This document shows, piece after piece, positions 3,916 to 44,349 of a stretch of DNA of 64,000 bases. The DNA is taken from IMG/VR virus record IMGVR_UViG_3300043219_000566, positions 1 through 64,000 of that record; one strand, given 5' to 3'. Every line of letters starts with the position of its first letter. Within the stretch, counting starts at the first letter, position 1. The notes beneath the pieces are model-generated. The model saw nothing but the letters and a program-made list of their open reading frames with translations, did no database searches and was not told the DNA's origin. The position numbers and the translations under genes were made by a program. Origin of the DNA: a virus.

Positions 3916-3951
3916 AGCTCACGTCTCCTGTAACTGCCCCCGCAATAATGA

Positions 3952-3978
3952 AAGCCCCGGGGACTGGCCCCGGGGCTT
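3952..3978 (-). terminator. Likely intrinsic terminator
   Basis: An 11-bp perfect GC-rich stem (AAGCCCCGGGG / CCCCGGGGCTT) with a 5-base loop lies 40 bp past the stop of the secreted-protein gene at 4021. On the minus strand it is followed by TTCATTATT. Confidence 0.65.
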
Positions 3979-4020
3979 AGCGCTTCAACCCGCACCAAAT
4001 GCTTCAATCCACGCCGACAG

Positions 4021-4731
4021 CTACGGACCCGAGCCAGGACGCGCATTGATGCCGTTGGCATCCTTCAACTTGCGCTCCCAGCGCATCGGAACAGCATAGA
4101 CCGGGGGACACGGGTCGCAGTTCTCGTTGATGTCTTCATAGCACGCAAGCGTGTTAAACATGCAAGGAACTGTCCCATGCCCAGTACCGAGAATCAAAGC
4201 CTCGTTATCGAAAACCTTCTTGGCTCTGACCCTGATCTGATAAATGGTCTGGTAATCGCCGCTGGTGTCACACCAGACACACTCAGGGTATCCCGGAACG
4301 CCGCGCGCTACGAACGAGGCGTAATACCCCGTGTCATTGTCGAGCGTGTACACAGAGAAGTTGAAATCTTCGACAACGACCGTAGGCCCGGCATCCTCGA
4401 CCTCGAAATAGGTCGGATCGAAGTCGATCATTGTCTGGACGCCGTAAAGCGCATCGCTGTTTCCATGATCGCCGTCGCCGTCCCAATCGGCCTCGATCTC
4501 GACCCAGAACCACTCGCCGACAGTAACCACGCGCGGCGCGTCCAGTCCCAGCCGCGAGCAAGTTCCCGTGCACGTGTCCTCGCACGGCGGGTCATCTCCG
4601 TCCAGCGGATCGGGCAAATCGGGACCACCACCGAAAGTGATCACGTCGTCACCGCCAGCCTCCATGAAATCGAGCCCGTAAACTGCCGGAACTCCCAGCG
4701 CGAGTATCGCGCACAACAAAACGTACCGCAT
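4021..4731 (-). CDS. Secreted cohesin-like protein (236 aa)
   Basis: The ATG at 4731 is chosen because AAGGAG precedes it; an in-frame start five codons earlier lacks one. Residues 1-20 (MRYVLLCAILALGVPAVYG) form a classic signal peptide. The mature part has a Cys-rich segment (CEDTCTGTC) and then VTVGEWFWVEIEADWDGDGD...MIDFDPTYFEVED. The latter matches the start of a cohesin or similar beta-sandwich domain (an xVGDxFxVxV strand, then a FDP strand). It is one of four related secreted products in this window and probably acts outside the host cytoplasm; the target is unknown. Confidence 0.6.
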   Translation of the reverse strand: MRYVLLCAILALGVPAVYGLDFMEAGGDDVITFGGGPDLPDPLDGDDPPCEDTCTGTCSRLGLDAPRVVTVGEWFWVEIEADWDGDGDHGNSDALYGVQTMIDFDPTYFEVEDAGPTVVVEDFNFSVYTLDNDTGYYASFVARGVPGYPECVWCDTSGDYQTIYQIRVRAKKVFDNEALILGTGHGTVPCMFNTLACYEDINENCDPCPPVYAVPMRWERKLKDANGINARPGSGP

Positions 4732-4753
4732 GTCCAACTCCTTCAAACAGCCC

Positions 4754-4775
4754 GCAGAGCCACCACTGGCTCTGC
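4754..4775 (-). other. Perfect stem-loop in the leader of the secreted-protein gene
   Basis: Nine-bp arms GCAGAGCCA / TGGCTCTGC enclose four bases. It lies between the membrane-protein gene stop (4821) and the secreted-protein start (4731). It could terminate the upstream transcript or control the downstream gene; no U-run follows directly. Confidence 0.45.
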
Positions 4776-4820
4776 AACTAAAGCGAAACGGCTACACGCC
4801 GCCTCGCCTCACTTACTACA

Positions 4821-5015
4821 TTAGCTCGCAGCCAGCGCCGGTCCCCACCACCAGATCCAACACGCGCTAACGGCAATCAACACCACAGATGCCAAAAGCG
4901 AGCCAGGCATTTTATCGAGCTTGCCGATCATCAAAGCAAAGAAGCACGCACTAATGTTAGCTACGAGCACGATCCAGGCGACAACCATAATCACAGTCAG
5001 CAAGAAACCGGGCAT
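4821..5015 (-). CDS. Small membrane protein, two TM segments (64 aa)
   Basis: Residues 3-29 (starting FLLTVIMVVAWIVLVANISA) and about 38-58 (PGSLLASVVLIAVSACWIWW) are strongly hydrophobic and separated by a short polar loop (GKLDKM). No other motif is visible. A holin-like role is possible from size and topology alone, but nothing else supports it. It lies between two secreted-protein genes and has terminator-like hairpins on both sides. Confidence 0.6.
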   Translation of the reverse strand: MPGFLLTVIMVVAWIVLVANISACFFALMIGKLDKMPGSLLASVVLIAVSACWIWWWGPALAAS

Positions 5016-7421: not shown

Positions 7422-7781
7422 TTAGGCCAGCTTCCTGCGTCTGATCTCGTCCGTACGGCGAATATGCTTGATCACCTGCGTGAAACTGACCGGGTGCTGA
7501 CTCCGATGATCCGCATGCAGATCCTGGACTCGCTCGCGAGCAAGCGGCGAACGGATAGTACGGTACTTGTTGACGCCCGCGCCCATCTCACGGGCCAGCA
7601 CGCCCACGTGGTCGCGCTCGCCGTCGGTAATCTGGTCCTCGCGCAGCCCGTACAGCATGGCCGCGATCTGGCGGTAACCAAATCCCTCCGCAGCGTAGAA
7701 CTTGATCCACACCCTTTCCCAGTCGGTCGTGGACTCCTTCGCCCGACGGTGGCCGGGCGCGCGGGAGGTTACAGGTGGCAT
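7422..7781 (-). CDS. Hypothetical protein (119 aa), possible HTH
   Basis: Residues 25-45 (WIKFYAAEGFGYRQIAAML) resemble the recognition part of a helix-turn-helix (GxxxRQIAxxL), and both ends are Arg/Lys-rich. The start at 7781 lies 3 bp from the stop of the upstream zinc-binding gene. It could be a small DNA-binding regulator; the evidence is limited to that motif. Confidence 0.55.
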   Translation of the reverse strand: MPPVTSRAPGHRRAKESTTDWERVWIKFYAAEGFGYRQIAAMLYGLREDQITDGERDHVGVLAREMGAGVNKYRTIRSPLARERVQDLHADHRSQHPVSFTQVIKHIRRTDEIRRRKLA

Positions 7782-7784
7782 GAG

Positions 7785-8057
7785 CTAGACTCCTATCTCG
7801 TTGATCGACTTGGTGGCCAGCGCCAGCAGGTCCCGAACGTGCGCCAATCTCAGACGCAGTTCAGCAGCTTCAGTCTCGACCGGCCGCGACTCGGGCTCAG
7901 CAGGGGGACTCGCGATCTCTCCCTTTGAGGCCTGCGGCGGAACCGGGTACATGAAGCGCTGGCTCTTGAGTTTGCGCTTGCACGCTGCCTCGTGCTTACC
8001 CACACCATGGGGATGACACGGCCGGTAACAGAATTTGCAGTAAACGTTCTTGCACAT
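7785..8057 (-). CDS. Small zinc-finger protein (90 aa)
   Basis: The N terminus has CKFC, then CHPHGVGKHEAAC, a C-x2-C...H...C arrangement typical of a single zinc finger. A Pro/Glu-rich linker (about 45-62) leads to a C-terminal helix with coiled-coil character (ELRLRLAHVRDLLALATK). A dimeric nucleic-acid-binding role is plausible. Tight spacing (3 bp) to the next gene indicates one transcript. Confidence 0.6.
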   Translation of the reverse strand: MCKNVYCKFCYRPCHPHGVGKHEAACKRKLKSQRFMYPVPPQASKGEIASPPAEPESRPVETEAAELRLRLAHVRDLLALATKSINEIGV

Positions 8058-8070
8058 TGGTTAATCCTCG

Positions 8071-8472
8071 TCACGAAGCACGTCGTTGGCGGGCTTTCCG
8101 GCGAGCGTGCCACAGCATGCCGTGGCCCGCGCTCCGTCCGGTGTAGTACACGCCTTGGATCAGCGCTTCGATCTGGTGGTAGTGGGAACTGACAAACGAT
8201 CGAGGGGTGCGCCAGCAGCCGGTAATCCAGCAATGACCCATGAACGAGCCGTCGGCGGCGTTGATCACACCGCATTGGCCGACATATTCAACGGGCCACC
8301 CGCGCTTGTCGCGCGGGAACTCTGGATAGCCGTAAGCCTCGGTGGGCGTCAGATATGCTCCGCCCGCCGTAAACTTCTGCCCCTGGAACTCGATCGTTAC
8401 GCTCTCCGCGAAGCCGACGGGCTCCCCGGTGCTGCGGCGCGTCACCACGCCGCGCTCAATCTCGATTTTCAT
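8071..8472 (-). CDS. Hypothetical protein (133 aa)
   Basis: It begins MKIEIERGVVTRRSTGEPVG and has a beta-rich N-terminal half (AESVTIEFQGQKFTAGG). The C-terminal tail is basic (HARRKARQRRAS). No motif is recognised. It is 13 bp upstream of the zinc-finger gene, in the same operon. Confidence 0.6.
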   Translation of the reverse strand: MKIEIERGVVTRRSTGEPVGFAESVTIEFQGQKFTAGGAYLTPTEAYGYPEFPRDKRGWPVEYVGQCGVINAADGSFMGHCWITGCWRTPRSFVSSHYHQIEALIQGVYYTGRSAGHGMLWHARRKARQRRAS

Positions 8473-8511
8473 GGAATTGGAAGTGTAGAAACTCGATGGA
8501 AACCAGGAATA

Positions 8512-8697
8512 CTACGTTTCGAGACGCTGTTTCAGCTGCGTAACGATACCACGCAGTCGTTCGCGCTGCGCTTCGTCGAGCGGCTCGTGTTCGGCTGCCT
8601 CGACCAGCGCATTAGCGCATAAAACCAACGTAGCCACCGCATCACCAAGCCTGCGAGATGCCTCTGGCTCTTGGGGCTCATCGTGAGTCTGACACAT
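8512..8697 (-). CDS. Small acidic helical protein (61 aa)
   Basis: The ATG at 8697 has AAGGAG six bases upstream. The protein is acidic at the N terminus (THDEPQEPEAS) and otherwise helical, ending in LRGIVTQLKQRLET, which could form a coiled coil. No family is recognised. Confidence 0.55.
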   Translation of the reverse strand: MCQTHDEPQEPEASRRLGDAVATLVLCANALVEAAEHEPLDEAQRERLRGIVTQLKQRLET

Positions 8698-8921: not shown

Positions 8922-8942
8922 AGTGCTCCTCCTGCGAAAACA

Positions 8943-10448
8943 AACGCGCTTTTCCGAATCGGGTGTCTACAACCGGACGGCGCGCTCAACATGGGCGAGT
9001 GACTGAAGCAGAACGGCGCGCTAGTATTCGGCGGGTAACTGGGCACTCACGGCACGCTATCGTATGTTGGGTAACTAGGGTTCGGCGGCGCGCTTGTGCA
9101 AGTCGGGTGGCTACGTCCGGCCGACACGCTGACGTACAACGGATGACTGGCATCGCGAGGCGCGCTGCTGATCAATGGGGGGCTATCTCGGTATGGCACG
9201 CTAACCCGCTTCGGGTGTGACTTGCCGCGATCGGCGCGCTTCAACCATCTGGGTGACTGTTGCTATTCGGCGCGCTCTGACCCCACGAGTAACTCACACA
9301 CTCCGACACGCTCAGCTCATTCGGGTGACTGGCCGGATACGGCGCGCTGACGTTCACCGGATAACTAACATAAGGCGACACGCTTAGCTTGAGCGGGTGA
9401 CTAATCGGGGCTGGCGCGCTACGCCCGGAAGGTTAACTTTCTTGTCGCGGCACGCTGGGGACAAGCGGATGACTCGTTCTCACCGGCGCGCTAACTTGTC
9501 TAGGGTAACTGGGTCCGATCGGCACGCTAGCGTACAACGGTTGGCTCAGCCGATTCGGCCCGCTCATGCAGCTCGGAGGGCTAACCTGTAGCGGCGCGCT
9601 CTGGTGAACAGGGTGACTAATACTGGACGGCGCGCTTGGGCGACTCGGGAGACTAGATCCAAAACGGCACACTCATTCTCGTCGGGCAACTCCGGGTAAT
9701 CCGGCGCGCTTTCGAGCTAAGGGTAACTACACGAGTACGGCACGCGAATGTAACGCGGGTAACTGCTCCGCTGCGGCACGCTGCGGCACTGTGGGTAGCT
9801 TGATCGGCCTGGCACGCTTGGGCGACTCGGGCGACTGAAGTTGAGCGACACGCTGCGCCAGTACGGATGACTATATTCGTATGGCGCGCTGTTCACTGAC
9901 AGAGAGCTAAAACTGGTCAGCACGCTGCGCCAGTACGGATGTCTTGACACGTTCGGCACGCTGTTCCATCGCGGGTTACTATCCGTTGCAGGCGCGCTCT
10001 GCCTCCTAGGGTGACTGCCGCATGATGGCACGCTCCAACTACGCGGAGGACTACGTTGAAACGGCGCGCTATTGTGGTCTGGATAACTTCCACTATACGG
10101 CACGCTCCCACGACACGGGTAACTGTCCCACTCCGGCACGCTACCGCGTATAGGGTGACTTTCATCGACCGGCACGCTCAGTTTGCACGGATGTCTAATC
10201 TGCGCTAGCACGCTCCTGTTCCCCGGATGACTGGATACGTCCGGCACGCTTCTTCGCTTCGAGTTACTGTCAGCCGCAGGCACGCTACGTATTTCCGGGT
10301 AGCTAGTTTCGCACGGCACGCTCGTTCTTGCTGGATAACTCTCCTGTTCTGGCACGCTCCTGCGTCCAGGGTAACTTAGTCTGCGCGGCGCGCTCTGTTT
10401 CCGCGGATGACTGTTTCGCGACGGCGCGCTAAAACACTTCGGGTAACT
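8943..10448. repeat. TIGR array 1 (tandem interspaced guide RNA array, about 42 units of 36 bp)
   Basis: The stretch is built from a 36-bp unit: an 8-bp block GGCRCGCT, ten variable bases, an 8-bp block near GGGTGACT (variants GGGTAACT, GGATGACT, GGGTGGCT), and ten variable bases. Spacing is almost invariant; single-base or two-base insertions occur near 9213, 9655 and 9690. The first block (aacgcgct at 8943) is degenerate. The two block types share GG at the left and CT at the right. This agrees with published TIGR arrays, whose RNAs are processed into 36-nt tigRNAs with two short spacers, and not with CRISPR. Nearly all spacers are unique; gcgccagtac and tgggcgactc each occur twice. The transcribed strand cannot be decided. 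Plus-strand RNA would carry the UGA-containing block, a faint box-C-like hint. Confidence 0.85.
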
Positions 10449-10474
10449 GCCGTTCAGCGGCAACACACACACAA

Positions 10475-10501
10475 GGAGCCTGCGCGAATCGCGCAGGCTC
10501 C
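10475..10501 (-). terminator. Intrinsic-terminator-like hairpin after the tas gene
   Basis: A perfect 12-bp stem GGAGCCTGCGCG / CGCGCAGGCTCC with a 3-base loop lies 18 bp past the tas stop. On the minus strand it is followed by TTGTGTGTGTG, a U-rich but not uniform tail. It would separate the tas transcript from array 1. Confidence 0.65.
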
Positions 10502-10519
10502 CTGCATGGGCAGACAAAT

Positions 10520-11644
10520 CTACGCAGCCGCGCTGTCGCCGTGCTGCAGCTTGCGGTCCTGGTACGACGGGAAGACCGGCAGGCCTTCCAGCTTACGCCA
10601 CTGGCAGTAGAGATCCTTCAGGAACATCTTGACCATGTAACGCACCGACATCTGGTACCGACGGGCCGCACTGGTGATGTAGTGCAGCTTCCCGTCCTTA
10701 CCCTCTGCCTGCTTGCCATCGTTGTGCGTCCCGTACTGCTCGTGGTTGTTCATACGGTGCCGGTAATTGTAGTAGACCCGCGCGTACGAATCCTCCGGGC
10801 TGACCAGCACTTGCTTGCGCGGCCGCTTCCGGCGGTTCTTCTCGTCCTCGCGGCCCCAGAGCGTCGCGCCACAGACCGTCCACGTTCCTTCGACCTTGCG
10901 CTCCAGACAGCTCTTGATCCTCCGGACAACCTCGGGGGCCTCCTCGTACGTCCGCTCGTCGCAGTAATCCCACTTGCCCACCTTCAGCAAGTTGGGACCG
11001 AGCACGCCCATGAGCTTCGTCTTCAGCCACGGGTTGTACGTGACGCTGAGCCGCGTCACCTTATTGCCCGCATGGTTGGTGTACTCCCGATCAACCAGAT
11101 GCTCCTTGCGCTTGGAGCGCCCGCGGTGGTCTCCGGCGACATCGAGCCCAGCGTACTTCCACAGGCTAGACGCATACCTGGCCTTGCGGATGTCGAACTC
11201 GCTGATGATCACCGCTGCCGCAACTTCCCCGATCCCGTCGATCGAGTTCAGCCACGGCCAGATGGAGCACTCGCTCAACAGCGCAGGCAGCGATTTGACC
11301 AGCTCCTTCTCGGCCGCAAGCAAGCTGTCGAGTACCCCGAGCAGCGCCTTCTCCGCCCCGGTGGCGATCAGGCCCTCGCCCTCTTCGAGCGGAAGTTCGC
11401 TCGCCGCCGCATCCGAAAGCCGCTTGCAGCTCTCGCGGAGCGCCGCAAGGTACTCCAAGCTCTGCTTGCTCAGCTCCTTCTCGGCCTTGCCGGGTTCTTG
11501 CCCCAGCTTGAACTTGATCTCCCCCACCAGCCGGTTGCTGCACGCGATCCGCAAACGTTGCGCATCGTCGCGACCCCGGACCGCCAGGCGAACTGCTCGC
11601 CGGAAGAGATCGAAAGGGTCAATGTCTCTTACAGATGCTACCAT
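10520..11644 (-). CDS. tas: Tas protein: Nop / IS110 C-terminal-like guide-RNA-binding protein without a nuclease domain
   Basis: The ATG at 11644 follows AGGAGAAG and gives 374 residues; the frame stays open upstream only because it enters the array. Residues about 28-125 are helical, coiled-coil-like and Lys/Glu-rich. Residues 135-168 (IDGIGEVAAAVIISEFD, then ASSLWKYAGLD) match the Transposase_20 domain at the C terminus of IS110/IS116 recombinases, which is related to the Nop domain of box C/D RNPs. The N-terminal DEDD RuvC-like domain of IS110 is absent, and no HNH or RuvC motif is seen. Residues about 250-330 are very basic (RRKRPRKQ), fitting RNA or DNA binding. It lies between two TIGR arrays. 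By analogy with published TIGR-Tas systems it should bind 36-nt tigRNAs and be guided to DNA. Without a nuclease, it may act by binding only or with a partner. Confidence 0.8.
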   Translation of the reverse strand: MVASVRDIDPFDLFRRAVRLAVRGRDDAQRLRIACSNRLVGEIKFKLGQEPGKAEKELSKQSLEYLAALRESCKRLSDAAASELPLEEGEGLIATGAEKALLGVLDSLLAAEKELVKSLPALLSECSIWPWLNSIDGIGEVAAAVIISEFDIRKARYASSLWKYAGLDVAGDHRGRSKRKEHLVDREYTNHAGNKVTRLSVTYNPWLKTKLMGVLGPNLLKVGKWDYCDERTYEEAPEVVRRIKSCLERKVEGTWTVCGATLWGREDEKNRRKRPRKQVLVSPEDSYARVYYNYRHRMNNHEQYGTHNDGKQAEGKDGKLHYITSAARRYQMSVRYMVKMFLKDLYCQWRKLEGLPVFPSYQDRKLQHGDSAAA

Positions 11645-11690
11645 GGTACTTCTCCTGTGTGTGTGAATGAAACAATGTCTTCTTTCAAAG

Positions 11691-14286
11691 AAGACGCTTT
11701 TCTCAGTCGAGCAACTAGTGCTCGTCGGCACGCTTTGTTTTTCCGGATGTCTGGCCCTCGGCAGCGCGCTCCTTTTGCACGGATAACTACCTTCACTCGG
11801 CACGCTGTAGTCATCTGGATGTCTCGGCTCCGGCGGCGCGCTTAGTTACTCTGGGGGTCTAAGACCTAACGACACGCTAATTGCTGCTGGGAGACTTGTT
11901 CGTGACGGCGCGCTAGTCCCTTCTGGGTAGCTGTTTCGTGACGGCGCTCTATTAGTCCGTGGGTGGCTGCGTCTTCTCGGATCGCTAGGAGCGCGCGGAT
12001 GACTATCACGATACGGCGCGCTGAATCCCTACGGATGACTACCCGATCAAGGCGCGCTAGACGTCCACGAGTAGCTGTCACAAAGCGGCACGCTGCTGCT
12101 ACACGGATAACTAAATGCGGCAGGCGCGCTGTTCAAACATGGGTGGCTAGGGCGTGTTGGCGCGCTCAGGGCCTCTGGATTACTAAACGTTTCCGGCACG
12201 CTGTACGTCAACGGAAGACTCGTGTGATGCGGCACGCTGGGGCAATGCGGATGACTAACCAGGGCTGGCTCGCTCTCTTGTCATGGAGATCTAGGATGGA
12301 ACGGCACGCTCTGTCTTTCCGGGTGACTACCGCCGATTGGCGCGCTACTTCATCCTGGGTGACTGGACTACGTCGGCACGCTGCACGTTCGTGGGCAACT
12401 GGTGGATTGCGGCGCGCTCCGACTCACTGGGTAACTATCACCTGGTGGCGCGCTGGGGCAATCTGGGTGACTCGCACGATACGGCGGGTACGCGGCACGC
12501 TGAACTCGGCCGGGTGACTCATCAGGGACGGCACGCTCTTTTGTCGTGGGGATCTAGGCTGGAACGGCGCGCTCGGCCTTTCCGGGTGGCTGCGGTCGCG
12601 TGGCACGCTAAATCTAGGCGGGTATCTGGCCAAAAATGGCGCGCTTATGCAGCCCGGGTGGCTGACATTGCTCGGCACGCTGTACCTCAACGGAGATCTT
12701 TGTGAACGTGGCACGCTTATACGACACGGATGACTCTGGGTATGCGGCACGCTGAACTTGAGCGGGTGTCTCGCCCCGGTTGGCACGCTCCATCGTCCAG
12801 GGTGACTGGCGCGACATGGCACGCTGCACTTCTGCGGTTGTCTCCAGTCGCTTGGCGCGCTAGTCTTCTGCGGGCAACTTTAGTCGCACGACACGCTAGT
12901 CCCGCCTGGGTAACTCCGCCTTTTTGGCACGCTGGAGGAAGCTGGATGTCTACCTCGCCGCGGCACGCTAATTCCGAACGGGCGACTTATGACGCGCGGC
13001 ACGCTCCGCCCCGGCGGTTGACTGCGACTCCTTCGGCACGCTCAAGCGGTACGGGTTGCTGAGCGAACTAGGCGCGCTTTCGCGGAACGGGTGACTGTGA
13101 CTGTACGACACGCTCCGCTCGCTTGGATAGCTCCTTCTGTGCGGCGCGCTACGGTTGTTCGGGTGACTGCCACGATACGGCGCGCAAAGGCCCCTCGGGT
13201 GGCTGGCCAAAGACGGCGCGCTGGGACGGCTCGGGTGACTTAGTGGAGCTGGCGCGCTTATTGTGCGCGGAAGACTAACGCGACATGGCGCGCTCGTACG
13301 GTACGGGTGGCTATTTCGGAGCGGCACGCTAGGGTGACAAAGGAGACTTTGCTCACTCGGCGCGCTCATTCGATACGGGTGACTGAGCAAGCTAGGCGCG
13401 CTCTAAACAAGCGGTTGTCTCGTCCTGCTCGGCGCGCTGTAACCTGTCCGGGTGACTACCGCTTGTCGGCGCGCTCACTGCTTCTGGGTAACTGCCGTTT
13501 CTCGGCACGCTGAGTAGACGCGGGTAACTACCGCCTGCAGGCGCGCTATCGCTGACCGGATGACTCGGATGGAACGGCGCGCTGTGCACGTTTGGGCAAC
13601 TATTTCCGCATGGCACGCTGCACAAGCTCGGGTAGCTCGCATCATGCGGCACGCTGGTTCCTGACGGGTAGCTTGCAAGCTCAGGCGCGCTGCGCTCGCA
13701 CGGGTGACTTCTCCGCTGTGGCACGCTTTTGTCGTACGGATGACTTCTATCCTCCGGCGCGCTGATATTCTGCGGGTAGCTAACGGATGACGGCGCGCCT
13801 TCGCCGACTGGGTAACTAACGTGATACGGCACGCTGACTTCTGCTGGGCAACTTTCGACATACGGCACGCTCGACCAGCGCGGGTGTCTTGTAGCGCGTG
13901 GCGCGCTTTCTTCCCGCAGATGACTGTGCTGGTACGGCGCGCTATCTCCTTCAGGGGTGGCTAGAGCGATGCGGCACGCTATTACGGAACGGGTAACTCG
14001 GCCTAATTGGCGCACTGGACCGACACGGGTAGCTCGTGGCACGCGGTACGCTTATGTCCTACGGGTGTCTGGCATCTCACGACACGCTGTTCTTGCAAGG
14101 ATGACTTCCGCCAGACGGCGCGCTAAGTTGTCCCGAGTGGCTTCTATTGGACGGCGCGCTCGGCTGGCTCGGGTGACTGACAATGGACAGCACGCTAACT
14201 TCGTCGGGGTGACTGAGTTTCCACGGCGCGCTAATTGTGCCCGGATGACTAGCGTTGGACGGCACGCTGTAATCCAACGGGTAACT
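11691..14286. repeat. TIGR array 2 (about 72 units of 36 bp)
   Basis: Same unit as array 1: GGCRCGCT, 10 variable bases, GGGTGACT-type block, 10 variable bases. The first unit (aagacgct at 11691) is degenerate; the last block (gggtaact) ends at 14286, six bases from the stop codon of the upstream gene. One spacer is 21 bp instead of 10 (12473-12493). Segments at 12267-12328 and 12530-12591 are diverged copies of each other, so the array has grown partly by segmental duplication followed by mutation of both blocks and spacers. It begins 46 bp upstream of the tas start codon, so one minus-strand transcript could carry both array and tas mRNA. Long ORFs of 12-residue repeats here are a by-product of the 36-bp period. 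Confidence 0.85.
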
Positions 14287-14292
14287 CCACTA

Positions 14293-15162
14293 CTACGGCG
14301 TCGATCGAATCCGGTTGAGCATCTCCGACAAGTCGACTAGCCCAACCGCGCCATCACCGTCGGAATCGTACTCATCGTTCATCTCGCCGTAAACCGACAG
14401 CAACCCCGCAAGATCCGCCAGCGTAGCCGGAGCGCTCTCAATGATGATGATCGAACAACCGCGCCGCCCGGCAAGCAAGTTCCACCCACCATACTGTTCG
14501 TCGTAGATGGCGCTGTGTGAGTACATGTTGAACGAGAGCGGAATCTCGATCGTAGAGTTCGGCGCTATAGCAAGCGCCTCGAAGTGAAGCGTGTCGATCA
14601 ATAGGCCAGCCGGAGTTGCCTCTGGGAACGGACCCATACTGGCCCAGGCCTGGTAATCAGCAGTTCCATCCTCGTTGGTGTTGTTGATGCCGCCCAGCCC
14701 GCTGTCCGGCGGAAACCCCTGGAACATCCATTGACCACCGGACGTAGGATCAGGCGGCCAAGCCCCACCCTCGCCAACCAGCCGCAGCTCAGTCGGGTCC
14801 CACTGCAACAAGCAGTCGAGCAGGCAAAACGGTTCGTTCTGCCCAACCGCGAAGATGTGCACGTCGACGATGTCGCCTACGTGCCTCGTCTCGGCAGTGC
14901 AGCGTAGTTCAAGATCGACCGGAAGGTTGGCATTGGCCGGAACATCGTAGGCGAACACCGCGGTTGCAAAGGGCTCGTCGGTGCCCCACTCGTTGTCGTC
15001 CACCGCGTACAGCTCAACATAGACAGTGTCGCCTATTTCCGCGGCAGGAGTTTCAGTCCGCAGATCCAAATCAATAACCCGCCAGTCTTGAGCTTGCGCG
15101 CAGCAAACCGCCGCAACAGCTAGCACTGATGCAACCAGCGCCATTTTCCAAATCCGGGACAT
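14293..15162 (-). CDS. Secreted protein with cohesin-like domains and a C-terminal dockerin-type EF-hand (289 aa)
   Basis: AAGGAG precedes the ATG at 15162. Residues 1-25 are a signal peptide (LVASVLAVAAVCCAQAQ). The N-terminal strand pattern occurs twice: VIDLDLRTETPAAEIGDTVY and then VDLELRCTAETRHVGDIVD, an internal duplication. The C terminus has DSDGDGAVGLVDLSEML, a complete 12-residue calcium-binding loop as in type I dockerins. A paralogue at 18082 shares WRVIDLDLRT, GFPxDSG and YGGWN but lacks the second repeat and the EF-hand. Dockerin-cohesin pairing outside the cell is the family theme; here the partner could be one of the neighbouring proteins. The gene ends six bases before array 2. 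Confidence 0.65.
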   Translation of the reverse strand: MSRIWKMALVASVLAVAAVCCAQAQDWRVIDLDLRTETPAAEIGDTVYVELYAVDDNEWGTDEPFATAVFAYDVPANANLPVDLELRCTAETRHVGDIVDVHIFAVGQNEPFCLLDCLLQWDPTELRLVGEGGAWPPDPTSGGQWMFQGFPPDSGLGGINNTNEDGTADYQAWASMGPFPEATPAGLLIDTLHFEALAIAPNSTIEIPLSFNMYSHSAIYDEQYGGWNLLAGRRGCSIIIIESAPATLADLAGLLSVYGEMNDEYDSDGDGAVGLVDLSEMLNRIRSTP

Positions 15163-18081: not shown

Positions 18082-18717
18082 CTACTGATGCCTGATGCCG
18101 AACTGCCGCTCCCGGGGCAACAACGACATAACTTCGATGGCAATATCGTCCAGCTCATCAACGATGTTCCAGCCGCCATATTCGTCATCGTAAGCGCCGG
18201 CGACGGTCCAAAGATCAAACTCATCATGTATGACGAGCGTGGTCGCCCCGACACCCACGGCTTCAAAGATGAACGTCGTCACGTAGGTCCCGGCCGAAGT
18301 TGCTATCGGCAACGGGTTCCAGTAATTCGGCCAGGCATGATAGTCGCAGTCCCCATCCTCAAAAACCACATTCCATCCACCCATTCCGGAATCATCCGGA
18401 AAACCGGTGAACATCCAGTCGTAGTCGATATCGTCGCAGGGCTCAGCGTAGCCGTCTGGCGGCCATTCGGTCTCGCAGACCACGCCAAGTAACCGCAGAA
18501 CCGCCGAATCCCAGCGCAGGGGCGTAGTGACCATTGAGAACGGCTCATCCGTGCCCTCCCCGTTGTCGGCCACCGCGTACAGATCAACATACACGGTGTC
18601 GCCCACCTGCACCGCCGCCGTATCCGTTCGCAGGTCAAGATCGATCACGCGCCACGACTGAGCCTTGGCGGCAGCCAAGCCGCAACCCAAAACCAGAACA
18701 AGTAGTACAGCTCGCAT
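18082..18717 (-). CDS. Secreted cohesin-like protein, paralogue of the gene at 14293 (211 aa)
   Basis: The ATG at 18717 has AAGGAGC upstream; in-frame upstream codons belong to the leader. A signal peptide (MRAVLLVLVLGCGLAAAKAQ) is followed by SWRVIDLDLRTDTAAVQVGD, nearly the same as in the paralogue 3 kb away. Shared later motifs are TEWPPD, WMFTGFPDDSGMGG and DDEYGGWNIVDEL. It lacks the paralogue's second N-terminal repeat and its EF-hand. The fold expected is a calcium-binding or carbohydrate-binding beta sandwich. A promoter-like element and a dyad lie just upstream, so it may be transcribed on its own. Confidence 0.65.
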   Translation of the reverse strand: MRAVLLVLVLGCGLAAAKAQSWRVIDLDLRTDTAAVQVGDTVYVDLYAVADNGEGTDEPFSMVTTPLRWDSAVLRLLGVVCETEWPPDGYAEPCDDIDYDWMFTGFPDDSGMGGWNVVFEDGDCDYHAWPNYWNPLPIATSAGTYVTTFIFEAVGVGATTLVIHDEFDLWTVAGAYDDEYGGWNIVDELDDIAIEVMSLLPRERQFGIRHQ

Positions 18718-18750
18718 TTGTAGCTCCTTCGAGTTAGGACCAAAAACGCA

Positions 18751-18769
18751 GATAATCTTCTTGATTATC
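18751..18769 (-). promoter_or_regulatory. AT-rich dyad in the leader of the secreted protein gene
   Basis: Perfect 7-bp arms GATAATC / GATTATC with a 5-base loop lie just downstream of the predicted transcription start and before the start codon at 18717. It is followed on the minus strand by TGCGTTTTTGG. It could be an operator, an attenuator or a weak terminator. Confidence 0.4.
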
Positions 18770-18782
18770 CTCGCGCGGCCCA

Positions 18783-18791
18783 ATACTACCA
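18783..18791 (-). promoter_or_regulatory. Candidate extended -10 promoter
   Basis: TGGTAGTAT on the minus strand fits TGn plus a -10 hexamer (TAGTAT). It lies between the stop of the glycosidase-like gene and the start of the secreted gene. No good -35 box is seen. The same TGG-TAG-AT form appears at 47450 upstream of the replication genes. Confidence 0.4.
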
Positions 18792-40765: not shown

Positions 40766-43700
40766 CACGCCGTCCTCGGCAAGTACGGTTCCGGCACGCC
40801 CATCTTCTCTAACTTGGCACGCAGCTCGGCTGCGGCCTCGGGCTCCTTCTTCGGATCAGGCTTCTCGTCCCAGCGCAGGAACAGCTCCTTGTCGACGTCG
40901 ATGGCGTAGCCACCGTTAGCAAACTTGCTGTCGTCAACGAGATCGTAGAGCCCGTTACACACGCCCTTCGGCGGCAGTGGGATACGAGCCAGATTGCTCA
41001 TGCACCAATCGATGAGGCAGTTCGTCCGCATCATCAAATCGATAGAGCCCACGGCTACCTCGAAGATCAAAGCGTCATGCACACCCAGAGCAATACGGAA
41101 GTCGAGCGAGTAATTGCGCTGCACGCGATACTGCTCGCGCGCATCACGGCAATTATACACCGCCTTGTTCAAACATTCCGCTACCGTGCTCTGAATCGGA
41201 AAATTGCAAGCCTCTCGCTCCTGCTGTGACATCACGGACGAGTCGTCTACCGTGTGGAACCGCCGATAACGCCAGCACGGGTTGATCAAATAGCCCGGAG
41301 AATGAACTGCCTGGCGACACAGATCCAAGAACCGCGACACCTCGACAAACTCGCTGTGGAAACTGTTGATCATCGCCTGGCAATCGTCGGTCGTAACCTC
41401 GACGCCCTCCTGCTTTAGCTCGCGGGCAATCGCCCCGGCCGAACGGCCGTAAGGGATGCCGAAATTGACGGTTTTGGCCGCCACGCGCTTGTCCTTACCG
41501 ATGCTCTCGACGTAGCCCTTGGGCGGGCCGTGCATAACGGCGCAGTACGGCAGCTTGAAACCGCTGATCGCGCGCTCGGCGTGCAGGTCTCGCTTCCAGG
41601 GAATCATCTTCACGGTGGTGTCCACCGCAGTAGAGAACACGTGCCATTGCCCAGCACGATCCTTGTACTCCCCGTAACGCGTACCGGACGGGATCTCGTC
41701 GCCCTCCCTGACGGCGATATCACGCACCCAATCCGGGTGCAGCCAGCGGTACGGCTCGCCTAGCGCGTCAACCAGCACCGGGTAAGGCGGACGCTCTGTC
41801 AGCACGTTCCAGAATTGCAGGTCCCCGGACAGCAGAGCCAACACGATCAGCTCAGCTTGGCAGTAGTCGGCTTCGACCAGCACATAGCCGGGCTGCGCCA
41901 TAAAAATAGAACGGATCTTGGGCGGAGCCTGCTCCCACTTGGCGAACATAGCGTGCAGCTCAGGCTCGCGGCGTTTGGGCAAGTTCTGAAGATTGGGCTT
42001 TCGGGAAGCCCAGCGACCGGTCTCCAGTATCTGCAGAATATGAGTGCGCACCCGCCCGTCAGGGTCGACGTGCTGCATCAATCCGCCCTCGGTAATCTCG
42101 TGTGTATCCGGGTCGATTACCGGCAAGCTAGTGAAGTTCTTGCAGACCTGATCCACGAAACGCAGTTTACGCAGCTGGTTGGCCACCGGGTCCTCGGGAG
42201 ACAAAATCCCCAAGGTTTCCTTGTCGGTGCTGGGCGCACACTCCAGCTGACGTCTATCGCGCAGCACCCGATCCCAGTCGATCGGTGGCTTATCGGTGCT
42301 TTTGATCGGAGTCAACCCGCAGCAGTAGGCCCCCGCGGGCCGAAGGCGGATCGGCACGAGCGGCGTATCCCGCTTCTTGCCATTGAACGCCTCGCCGAAC
42401 AGTAGCTCGCGCACGTGCTGGATCGAGCGAAAATTGAAAGCTGGCCATTCGATCTGCTTGCGCAAGTAATCGAGCAACTCCGTTTTCTTGCGATCGTAAG
42501 TAATCGCCAGCTCGGTGATCCGATCCCGGTCTGCCAGCAGACCGGTTTCCTCGATCTCCAAAATGCCCACGCACGAACGCATCTCTTCGGACAGTAGCTC
42601 AGCCAGCTTCGCGCGATCCTCGTGGCACATATTGTCCTGCTCAGCGTACCGCTCATCGAGCCGCTCGTCGCAGCGCCAGGTCACGTCGGCATCGAACAGG
42701 GCGTAGAGATACAACACGTGCTCCGGGATCAATCCGAAGCCCTTGGCAGCTGGCACCGCGAGTTCGTCGAGCCATCCCTGCAGCTCGGTTTCGTACCGAT
42801 CCACGTCGGTGTACTTGAGCATCAGCGAGGACAGATCCTGCTTGGCACTCTCGTACAACAGGTGGTGCTTCAGCATGGTGTCGAAGCCGTCGGCGTACTT
42901 GTCGATAAAGTCGATGCCCAGCGATTTCACCCACGGATAATCAGCCCGCAAATTGTGTCCGCCGATCCGCGTGCCAGGATGCAGCAGTAGCCGCGCCAGC
43001 TCTTTGCTGACTTCCGCCATCTCCGCGTCGGTGAAATTGGGCACCAGAGCGTTGAGCACCTCGACGCCCATCTCCGGGACTTTGTTGCCAGCCGCATCAG
43101 TCCACACGTAACCCAAGGCAGGCTGTCCGTCGTCGTCTACGTACTCCATGTCGTACGCCAGCGCCTGCGAAACAGTGGGCTTGGGGAAGCTAATGAGATT
43201 GGGATGCCCGTTCACGGAAGCGTAATGCCGCGGAAAAGGTACCCGCGCGTGGCGGTGGAAAGGAATCAACACCGCGTGCCCGGATTTGTACGACAACTGC
43301 AACGTCAACAGCTTGCCGTCGGCCCACGGGCTACGACCAGACCACTCGCAGTCCAACGCGAGCTTGTTCTCGCTCTCCTGCAACCGCTGGTCTACGTACT
43401 CACGTACCTGATGAACCGAGCGCAGTACACAAGCATTGTTGACCTGCCCGTCCACGTCCTGATACTCCCGCGGAATCTGTTTGCGTATCGTGCCGCAGGC
43501 AAAACTCGACGCTCGCGCCAGATCGTTGGACAGCCCGTCCCGCATATTCGGCTCACGAGCTACCGCAGCCGGGTGCATGGTCGGAAAGGTGTTGATGACG
43601 ATCTCTTCGGGCACCTGCCCGGCGATATCGCACTCTTCGGGCTCCTGCCCACTGCTGTCGCATTGACGCGGCAAATGCGTCGTCCAGAGTCTTACCGACC

Positions 43701-44349
43701 CGCGGCTCTTGGTCACCGATGAGCCCCTGCCGTGAAAATGCTTGATAGCCTCGGTGCCCAGCAGAATCACTAGCTTCGGCCGGATGATAACCAGTTCTGC
43801 CCACAGCAACCAGGCACATTCCTTGACCCAGGCCTGCTTGAACTTACCACCCGGCGGAGGCTGGAAACGGCAAATGTTGGTAAAGTAGGCATCGTCGAGA
43901 AAGTCAGCGATACCCTGCTCGATCAAGCAACGCTGCAGCTCGCGTCCGCTCTCGCCGACGAACAGATAATCTGTGTCGTACTCGGTGCGGCCAGGATGTT
44001 TGCCGACGACCACGACCTTAGCGCAGCCGGGCCGCGGGCCACGAGGAAAGGCTTGCGCGGCCGTGCCCCGATTCGCATCGCGGGCAATCGGCTTGAACCC
44101 CGTGTGCCCAGGAATGAACTTCGCCGTATAAGGCAACCCGACGCCGATCGCGTCGGGGATCGGGCGGTTGTACACGTCACATAGCAAGTTCCAGAGAAAC
44201 GCCATGAAGTCGAAACGGTTCCGAAACGAATCTTCGAGAATGCTAGCCAACGCCGGACCCAGCGGAGGACCGTACGGGCGCTGCTCCTCGACGTTGCGCA
44301 ACGCCTCGACCCACGGCGGCAACCTCGGGTCGATAATCACTTGGCACAC
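40765..44349 (-). CDS. Fused uracil-DNA-glycosylase-like / 3'-5' exonuclease / family A DNA polymerase (1194 aa)
   Basis: Domain 1 (about 105-285) has VVVVGKHPGRTEYDTDYLFVG, FTNICRFQPPP, VILLGTEAIKHFHG and MHPAAV, the order of family 4/5 uracil-DNA glycosylases. Domain 2 (about 325-580) has LALDCEWSG (Asp333, Glu335), GHNLRADYPWV and YALFDADVTWRCDE, a DnaQ-type exonuclease. Domain 3 (about 600-1190) is family A polymerase: motif A EADYCQAELIVLALLSGD (about 826-843), O-helix RVAAKTVNFGIPYG (about 955-968) and motif C GVHDALIFE (His1091, Asp1092). About 110 residues separate motif A and the O-helix. Residues 230-249 hold a 10-residue tandem repeat (CDSSGQEPEE / CDIAGQVPEE). It should be the replicative polymerase; the fused glycosylase domain suggests sensing or repairing uracil in the template. 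Confidence 0.85.
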   Translation of the reverse strand: MCQVIIDPRLPPWVEALRNVEEQRPYGPPLGPALASILEDSFRNRFDFMAFLWNLLCDVYNRPIPDAIGVGLPYTAKFIPGHTGFKPIARDANRGTAAQAFPRGPRPGCAKVVVVGKHPGRTEYDTDYLFVGESGRELQRCLIEQGIADFLDDAYFTNICRFQPPPGGKFKQAWVKECAWLLWAELVIIRPKLVILLGTEAIKHFHGRGSSVTKSRGSVRLWTTHLPRQCDSSGQEPEECDIAGQVPEEIVINTFPTMHPAAVAREPNMRDGLSNDLARASSFACGTIRKQIPREYQDVDGQVNNACVLRSVHQVREYVDQRLQESENKLALDCEWSGRSPWADGKLLTLQLSYKSGHAVLIPFHRHARVPFPRHYASVNGHPNLISFPKPTVSQALAYDMEYVDDDGQPALGYVWTDAAGNKVPEMGVEVLNALVPNFTDAEMAEVSKELARLLLHPGTRIGGHNLRADYPWVKSLGIDFIDKYADGFDTMLKHHLLYESAKQDLSSLMLKYTDVDRYETELQGWLDELAVPAAKGFGLIPEHVLYLYALFDADVTWRCDERLDERYAEQDNMCHEDRAKLAELLSEEMRSCVGILEIEETGLLADRDRITELAITYDRKKTELLDYLRKQIEWPAFNFRSIQHVRELLFGEAFNGKKRDTPLVPIRLRPAGAYCCGLTPIKSTDKPPIDWDRVLRDRRQLECAPSTDKETLGILSPEDPVANQLRKLRFVDQVCKNFTSLPVIDPDTHEITEGGLMQHVDPDGRVRTHILQILETGRWASRKPNLQNLPKRREPELHAMFAKWEQAPPKIRSIFMAQPGYVLVEADYCQAELIVLALLSGDLQFWNVLTERPPYPVLVDALGEPYRWLHPDWVRDIAVREGDEIPSGTRYGEYKDRAGQWHVFSTAVDTTVKMIPWKRDLHAERAISGFKLPYCAVMHGPPKGYVESIGKDKRVAAKTVNFGIPYGRSAGAIARELKQEGVEVTTDDCQAMINSFHSEFVEVSRFLDLCRQAVHSPGYLINPCWRYRRFHTVDDSSVMSQQEREACNFPIQSTVAECLNKAVYNCRDAREQYRVQRNYSLDFRIALGVHDALIFEVAVGSIDLMMRTNCLIDWCMSNLARIPLPPKGVCNGLYDLVDDSKFANGGYAIDVDKELFLRWDEKPDPKKEPEAAAELRAKLEKMGVPEPYLPRTA

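What the first reader, a model, noticed from the sequence alone, without database searches (positions are those of the whole stretch)
8943..14286. A TIGR-Tas system with two very long arrays in a phage-like genome
The 36-bp unit, with two alternating 8-bp conserved blocks and two 10-base variable segments, is what has been described for tandem interspaced guide RNA (TIGR) arrays whose RNAs are cut to 36 nt and guide Tas proteins through two short spacers. The gene between the arrays encodes a protein with the IS110/Nop-type C-terminal domain and no nuclease. About 114 units, hence about 228 ten-base spacers, is a large guide repertoire. What a nuclease-free Tas does with so many guides (silencing, exclusion of rival phages, host gene control) is open. 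The array and domain are seen; the assignment follows the published TIGR-Tas description; the role is inference.
Basis: partly seen in the sequence, partly recalled or inferred. Interest (0 to 1): 0.95.

Follow-up and report, generated by a model that had tools for sequence, protein, structure and literature searches.

The report
Phage TIGR-TasA with 114 guide units
A large virus of microbes carries a recently described RNA-guided system (TIGR-Tas) without a DNA-cutting part but with the largest guide library among about 180 related loci examined, and comparing these libraries shows that the two halves of each guide are coupled at one base, which had not been reported.

Summary
On the minus strand, a 374-aa Nop/IS110-type protein (10523-11644) lies between two 36-bp-period arrays (72 + 42 = 114 units, 8942-14304). 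It is a TIGR-Tas system of the nuclease-free TasA kind: NCBIfam's TIGR-Tas model is passed, TasH/TasR are the best sequence and fold matches, nearly all detectable relatives carry 36-bp arrays, edge repeats keep two base pairs with compensatory changes, and arrays start and end with truncated edge repeats. The system is a new member of a known kind, but extreme: relatives have a median of 13-15 units (largest 94). It has no near-match in its own 216.5-kb genome. New here: within a unit, the last bases of spacers A and B are complementary far beyond chance (315/793 vs 209, z 9.2, 39 loci; absent between neighbouring units), although the discovery paper reported no obvious A/B covariation. This supports edge-to-edge units whose two spacer 3' ends meet. 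Most likely role: RNA-guided DNA binding that blocks rival mobile elements; the role is inferred. Targets and host are unknown.

The parts
11691..14304 (-). TIGR array 2 (upstream of tas): 72 units; [quoted passage not shown]
   Evidence: DP parse; edge AGCGYGCCR, loop AGTYAYCCR on the minus strand
11677..11695 (-). intrinsic-terminator-like hairpin directly at the 3' end of array 2 (GTCTTCTTTGAAAGAAGAC then ATTGTTTC)
10520..11644 (-). tasA gene, 374 aa, Nop/IS110-type, no nuclease domain; residues about 221-283 are an insertion absent from all aligned relatives
10468..10508 (-). very stable 19-bp hairpin between the tasA stop and array 1 (no U-tract)
   Evidence: -36.4 kcal/mol, z -7.45
8942..10466 (-). 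TIGR array 1 (downstream of tas): 42 units; [quoted passage not shown]
12465..12501 (-). irregular unit with about 11 extra bases
10463..10478 (.). arm of an inverted repeat that brackets tas; its partner 11649-11664 contains the GGAG ribosome-binding site of tas
   Evidence: 16 nt, 81% complementary

Best explanation
This is a TIGR-TasA system on a large virus of bacteria or archaea. Both arrays are transcribed on the minus strand with tas and, by analogy to published systems, cut within edge repeats into about 114 tigRNAs of 36 nt. A TasA dimer binds the box C (CCR) and box D (AG) ends of one edge and one loop repeat. It presents two 9-nt spacers that read opposite strands of one DNA site, the 3' ends of the spacers meeting at the site's centre. 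Having no nuclease, it most likely binds and bends DNA and so blocks transcription or replication of rival mobile elements. Shown: protein family, fold, array anatomy, box pairing, unit phase, A9-B9 coupling, no near-matched own-genome target. Inferred: transcription, processing, DNA binding, rivals as targets.
For: Family. Fold. Array next to tas in 59 of 62 relatives. Edge pairs 2-7 and 3-6 kept in 59/59 locus consensi with compensatory changes (C-G to T-A in 4, G-C to A-T in 2) and 112/113 and 110/113 within the window. Truncated edges at all four array ends and a terminator after array 2. A9-B9 complementary within units, not across units. Own genome: 0 paired sites with 0-1 mismatch. Spacers change almost completely between relatives whose flanks are 78-88% and Tas 93% identical, as expected of targets that change quickly. 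Published: tigRNAs are 36 nt, DNA is read on both strands, TasA binds 36-nt RNA, TasR drives plasmid loss (PMC12045711).
Against: No target was found in the own genome or in 0.82 Mb of relatives, so the role is inferred. TasR did not stop phage or conjugation in E. coli in the published test. No adaptation genes are known that would supply spacers from rivals. No sigma-70-like promoter and no terminator after array 1 were found. The purine excess at spacer position 5 is not predicted by free sampling of rival DNA.
Confidence: 0.6

Rival explanations
1. Same RNA-guided DNA-binding machine, but the targets are host genes: the virus uses many guides to silence host defence or metabolism during infection.
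For: Nuclease-free, so suited to silencing; the host is unknown, so host targets were not tested. The discovery paper lists counter-defence and gene regulation as options.
Against: Near-complete spacer turnover between close relatives fits poorly with conserved host genes; 214 of 216 spacers are distinct.
Confidence: 0.25
2. A DNA-bending or partition/integration aid: guided TasA bends own or host DNA to help integration, packaging or segregation.
For: TasR bends target DNA by about 180 degrees, and some published TasA loci sit with ParB-like genes.
Against: No paired site with 0-1 mismatch in the 216.5-kb own genome; 114 different guides are more than such a role needs.
Confidence: 0.08
3. 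A decaying or inert array: repeats drift and spacers carry no information.
For: Repeats are less uniform than in relatives; one damaged unit and several 10-nt spacers.
Against: Edge variants nearly all keep pairing (112/113, 110/113); the spacer position-5 bias (p 4e-13) and A9-B9 coupling (window: identical bases 11 vs 26.9, 1 of 2000 permutations) need ongoing selection; tasA is intact.
Confidence: 0.05
4. The repeats encode a protein of 12-residue Ser-X-Pro repeats (36 is a multiple of 3).
For: One frame reads S-V/A-P ... S-H/Y-P with ORFs up to 266 codons; stops are fewer than expected in that frame (13 vs 28).
Against: 15-26 stops per array in the best frames; relatives with other repeat sequences have stops throughout; the 9-9 coupling and box pairing are not coding features.
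Confidence: 0.01

Closest known systems
TIGR-TasA systems (Faure et al. 2025, PMC12045711), e.g. Flavonifractor plautii FpTIGR
   Same: Solo Nop-domain Tas, dual-repeat arrays with 36-nt units and two 9-nt spacers, arrays up- and downstream of tas, truncated edge repeats at array ends
   Different: 114 units against 'most often 5 to 15'; box C ends CCG more often than CCA; about 60-residue insertion in Tas; A9-B9 coupling not reported there
TIGR-TasH (PDB 9w04, 21kl, 9vzx) and TIGR-TasR (PDB 9mty)
   Same: Closest solved folds and sequence profile matches; same tandem-spacer arrangement
   Different: No HNH or RuvC domain here
IS110/IS621 RNA-guided recombinases
   Same: Transposase_20 domain and related RNA-binding fold
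   Different: No DEDD catalytic domain in the 374 aa, NCBIfam IS110 model far below cut-off (29 of 140 bits), arrays instead of a bridge RNA
Box C/D snoRNP Nop5/Nop56/58
   Same: Nop fold (weak Foldseek matches), box C/D logic
   Different: No K-turn RNA or L7Ae/fibrillarin partner seen; guides in 36-nt arrays

Membership tests
TIGR-Tas | Tas protein: Nop/IS110 RNA-binding core | tested here: met
   NF052498 103.1 bits above cut-off 100; Pfam Transposase_20; profile hits to TasR/TasH; Foldseek top ten all Tas
TIGR-Tas | Adjacent array of alternating edge and loop repeats (8-12 nt) with about 9-nt spacers | tested here: met
TIGR-Tas | Array starts with 5'-truncated and ends with 3'-truncated edge, followed by terminator | tested here: met
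   Truncated edges at all four ends; terminator-like hairpin only after array 2
TIGR-Tas | Box C/box D motifs shared by edge and loop, with paired bases that covary | tested here: met
   AG...CCR in both repeats; pairs 2-7 and 3-6
TIGR-Tas | 36-nt processed tigRNA bound by Tas | not testable with these tools
   needs small-RNA sequencing
TIGR-Tas | Two spacers read opposite strands of one DNA site | tested here: inconclusive
   A9-B9 coupling within units supports 3' ends meeting; no natural target found
TasH / TasR subtypes | N-terminal HNH or RuvC nuclease | tested here: not met
   Protein starts with the coiled-coil helices; no nuclease family hit
IS110 transposase | DEDD RuvC-like catalytic N-terminus plus serine domain | tested here: not met
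   IS110 model 29.2 of 140 bits, matching only its residues 120-271
CRISPR-Cas | 25-36-nt repeats with similar-size spacers and cas genes | tested here: not met
   9-nt repeats and spacers; no Cas-like or other defence-model hit for Tas or the three other proteins scanned

The most novel reading that the evidence does not exclude
In TIGR systems with 9-nt spacers the last bases of spacer A and spacer B are not independent: they tend to read the same central base pair of the target (a 17-bp site) or to pair with each other at the waist of the guide. TasA with 114 such guides is a high-capacity, non-cutting exclusion system whose spacers come from rival elements by an unknown acquisition route.
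Probability: 0.3. Interest if true: 0.85.

Novelty: new member of a known kind. Interest (0 to 1): 0.68.

Why it matters
What TIGR systems target, where their spacers come from and what nuclease-free TasA does are the open questions named by the discovery paper. A system with 114 guides gives far more statistical power for finding natural targets than the usual 5-15. The A9-B9 rule is a sequence-only constraint on how two spacers of one guide are related; it fixes the unit phase, supports the geometry in which the 3' ends of the spacers meet, and should sharpen target searches and guide design. Fast spacer turnover beside a conserved tas is evidence for changing targets. The isolated Microcystis phage found here with a tas gene and array offers a named host in which function can be tested.

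Tried and rejected
Protein-coding repeat: rejected by stops in every frame. Array built by recent tandem duplication: only one diverged block (12582/12319, lag about 7 units) and two repeated single spacers; repeat variants show no consistent neighbour correlation. Self-targeting: none; in own genome 0 sites with 0-1 mismatch, counts at 2-3 mismatches as in re-paired controls, and an apparent excess at one-base overlap and 4 mismatches (290 vs 216) is what A9-B9 complementarity itself produces. Targets in 0.82 Mb of tas-bearing relatives: none. A9-B9 coupling as an ordinary dinucleotide bias of contiguous DNA: rejected, centre CG is 0.2 of expectation while CG within spacers is 1.23. Spacer position-5 purine bias as a family rule: rejected, window only. 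A polymerase-based search for related viruses found none. No Rfam or PADLOC match. No close DNA relative in GenBank phages for the first 20 kb. The 61-residue Tas insertion matches no solved structure convincingly.

Full report
What is there. The window is the first 64 kb of a 216,501-bp IMG/VR virus record. Genes in it include a family-A DNA polymerase fused to a uracil-DNA glycosylase domain, an SbcC-like ATPase and an SbcD-like phosphoesterase, and a DnaB-like helicase, a UvsX-like recombinase and a further helicase. On the minus strand, in order of transcription, lie array 2 (14304-11691), a terminator-like hairpin (11695-11677), a 374-codon gene (11644-10520), a very stable 19-bp hairpin (10508-10468) and array 1 (10466-8942).

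The arrays. An alternating dynamic-programming parse finds 72 loop and 71 edge repeats in array 2 and 42 and 42 in array 1, about 114 units; nothing like it occurs elsewhere in the record. On the transcribed strand the edge repeat is AGCGYGCCR and the loop repeat AGTYAYCCR. The base after CC is G or A in about 90% of both, so repeats and spacers are each 9 nt rather than 8 and 10. Spacers are 9 nt in 216 of 225 cases and 214 of 216 are distinct. A strict edge-spacer-loop pattern is found 42 times against 0.00 in shuffles, always on the minus strand inside the arrays. Array ends show the published signature: a 5'-truncated edge at the start of each array (TCGACGCC, GTGTTGCC) and a 3'-truncated edge at the end (AGCGTCTT, AGCGCGTT).

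The protein. Pfam finds Transposase_20. NCBIfam's curated TIGR_Tas_endo model is passed at 103.1 bits (cut-off 100) while the IS110 transposase model stays at 29 of 140 bits. A profile of 51 relatives hits TasR (1.6e-31) and TasH (2.8e-29). An AlphaFold2 model (mean pLDDT 80.9) has TasH and TasR chains as its first ten PDB matches, target-normalised TM-score up to about 0.7, followed by Nop5 and Prp31 with weak scores. No HNH or RuvC domain is present. In alignments the protein carries about 60 residues (about 221-283) that all relatives lack; they are modelled with low confidence and match nothing. In a tree it is a long branch inside a well-supported clade of 18 (100/99).

Relatives. 59 of 62 Tas-homology loci in viral contigs and metagenome-assembled genomes carry 36-bp arrays near the tas gene. 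Median unit numbers are 13 and 15. The largest others are 94 (IMGVR_UViG_3300046054_000005) and at least 71 (L027, cut by the contig end). The phrase 'most often 5 to 15' is the discovery paper's.

Base pairing in the repeats. Across 59 locus consensi, edge positions 2-7 and 3-6 can always pair, with C-G to T-A changes at 3-6 in four loci and G-C to A-T at 2-7 in two; within the window 112/113 and 110/113 edges pair, including G-U. This agrees with the box C/D pair and extra edge pair described for TasR.

The new regularity. In the window the ninth bases of spacers A and B of the same unit were the most strongly coupled of 81 position pairs, with identical bases depleted (11 vs 26). This was then tested in other loci. 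In 21 clade relatives identical bases were depleted (57 vs 84, z -4.2) and complementary ones enriched (92 vs 69, z 4.0), robust to leaving out single loci. In 26 further loci with a variable position 9, complementary pairs were 209 vs 133 (z 9.1), and in the 94-unit system 29 vs 17. Pooled and deduplicated over 39 loci and 793 units: complementary 315 vs 209 (z 9.2, none of 2000 within-locus permutations), identical 120 vs 204 (z -7.4), G:T 66 vs 90; 33 of 39 loci exceed expectation. The same test on spacer B against the next unit's A gives nothing (190 vs 206). Without the window, 9-9 has z 10.1 and the next of the 81 position pairs 2.6. Loci in which position 9 is part of the conserved repeat show little or no effect. 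The discovery paper states that A and B show no obvious covariation and are unlikely to overlap. The coupling confirms edge-to-edge units and that the 3' ends of A and B meet. Two readings remain: both read one shared central base pair in part of the units, or A9 and B9 pair in the guide. Depletion of G:T speaks against a simple RNA pair; depletion of identical bases beyond dilution is not fully explained by a shared base pair.

Targets and function. Paired sites (A + reverse complement of B, gaps -1 to 2) in the own genome: none with 0-1 mismatch, and counts at 2-3 mismatches as in re-paired controls; likewise in 0.82 Mb of relatives. L037 and L043, whose flanks are 78-88% identical and whose Tas are 93% identical, share only about 3 of about 72-75 spacers, next to tas. 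This fits targets that change quickly. With no nuclease, guided binding that blocks transcription or replication of rivals is the best-supported guess, but only a guess: identity as TIGR-TasA about 0.97, RNA-guided DNA binding about 0.85, anti-rival role about 0.45.

Limits. No RNA or protein experiment; host unknown; array numbers depend on my parser and on contig ends; the A9-B9 test assumes 9-nt spacers and pools loci of unequal depth; the second locus sample was chosen by repeat pattern, not by presence of tas. Supplementary tables of the discovery paper could not be read, so published arrays of similar size may exist.

Noticed in passing
L084 (Microcystis phage Mvi-JY20, PP438412.1 17418-25822): CDS 3950-4675 and 4688-5007: An isolated phage with a named host (Microcystis viridis) carries a Tas relative annotated as hypothetical protein (XAI95461.1) followed directly by a 36-bp edge/loop array of 18 repeats, just before the annotated terminase gene.
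   Followed up: partly
window 8942-14304, spacers: Purine excess at spacer position 5 in both A and B spacers and both arrays (165/216 vs 113 expected, p 4e-13), at the register where TasR/TasH cut; not a family-wide rule. Unexplained.
   Followed up: partly
window 10463-10478 and 11649-11664: Inverted repeat bracketing tas (ACACACACAAGGAG / CTCCTGTGTGTGT): the 3' flank of the transcript could pair with the tas ribosome-binding site.
   Followed up: no
window 10468-10508: 19-bp hairpin, -36.4 kcal/mol (z -7.45), between tas and array 1, without a U-tract; terminator or RNase site unclear.
   Followed up: no
L037:5998-7077 and 7663-8659: Two regions of L037 align with the single tas region of L043 (L043:3016-4097), so the tas gene may be duplicated there, each copy behind its own array.
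   Followed up: no
window 40768-44349: DNA polymerase A gene fused at the N-terminus to a uracil-DNA glycosylase superfamily domain and a 3'-5' exonuclease domain.
   Followed up: no
window 14296-15162, 18085-18783: Secreted-looking proteins, one ending in a DSDGDGAVGLVDL dockerin-like motif (impression from the sequence), with no Pfam match.
   Followed up: no
L085-L204: The edge-loop-edge pattern alone retrieves at least 120 stretches of viral contigs, so TIGR arrays of this type are common in IMG/VR.
   Followed up: partly
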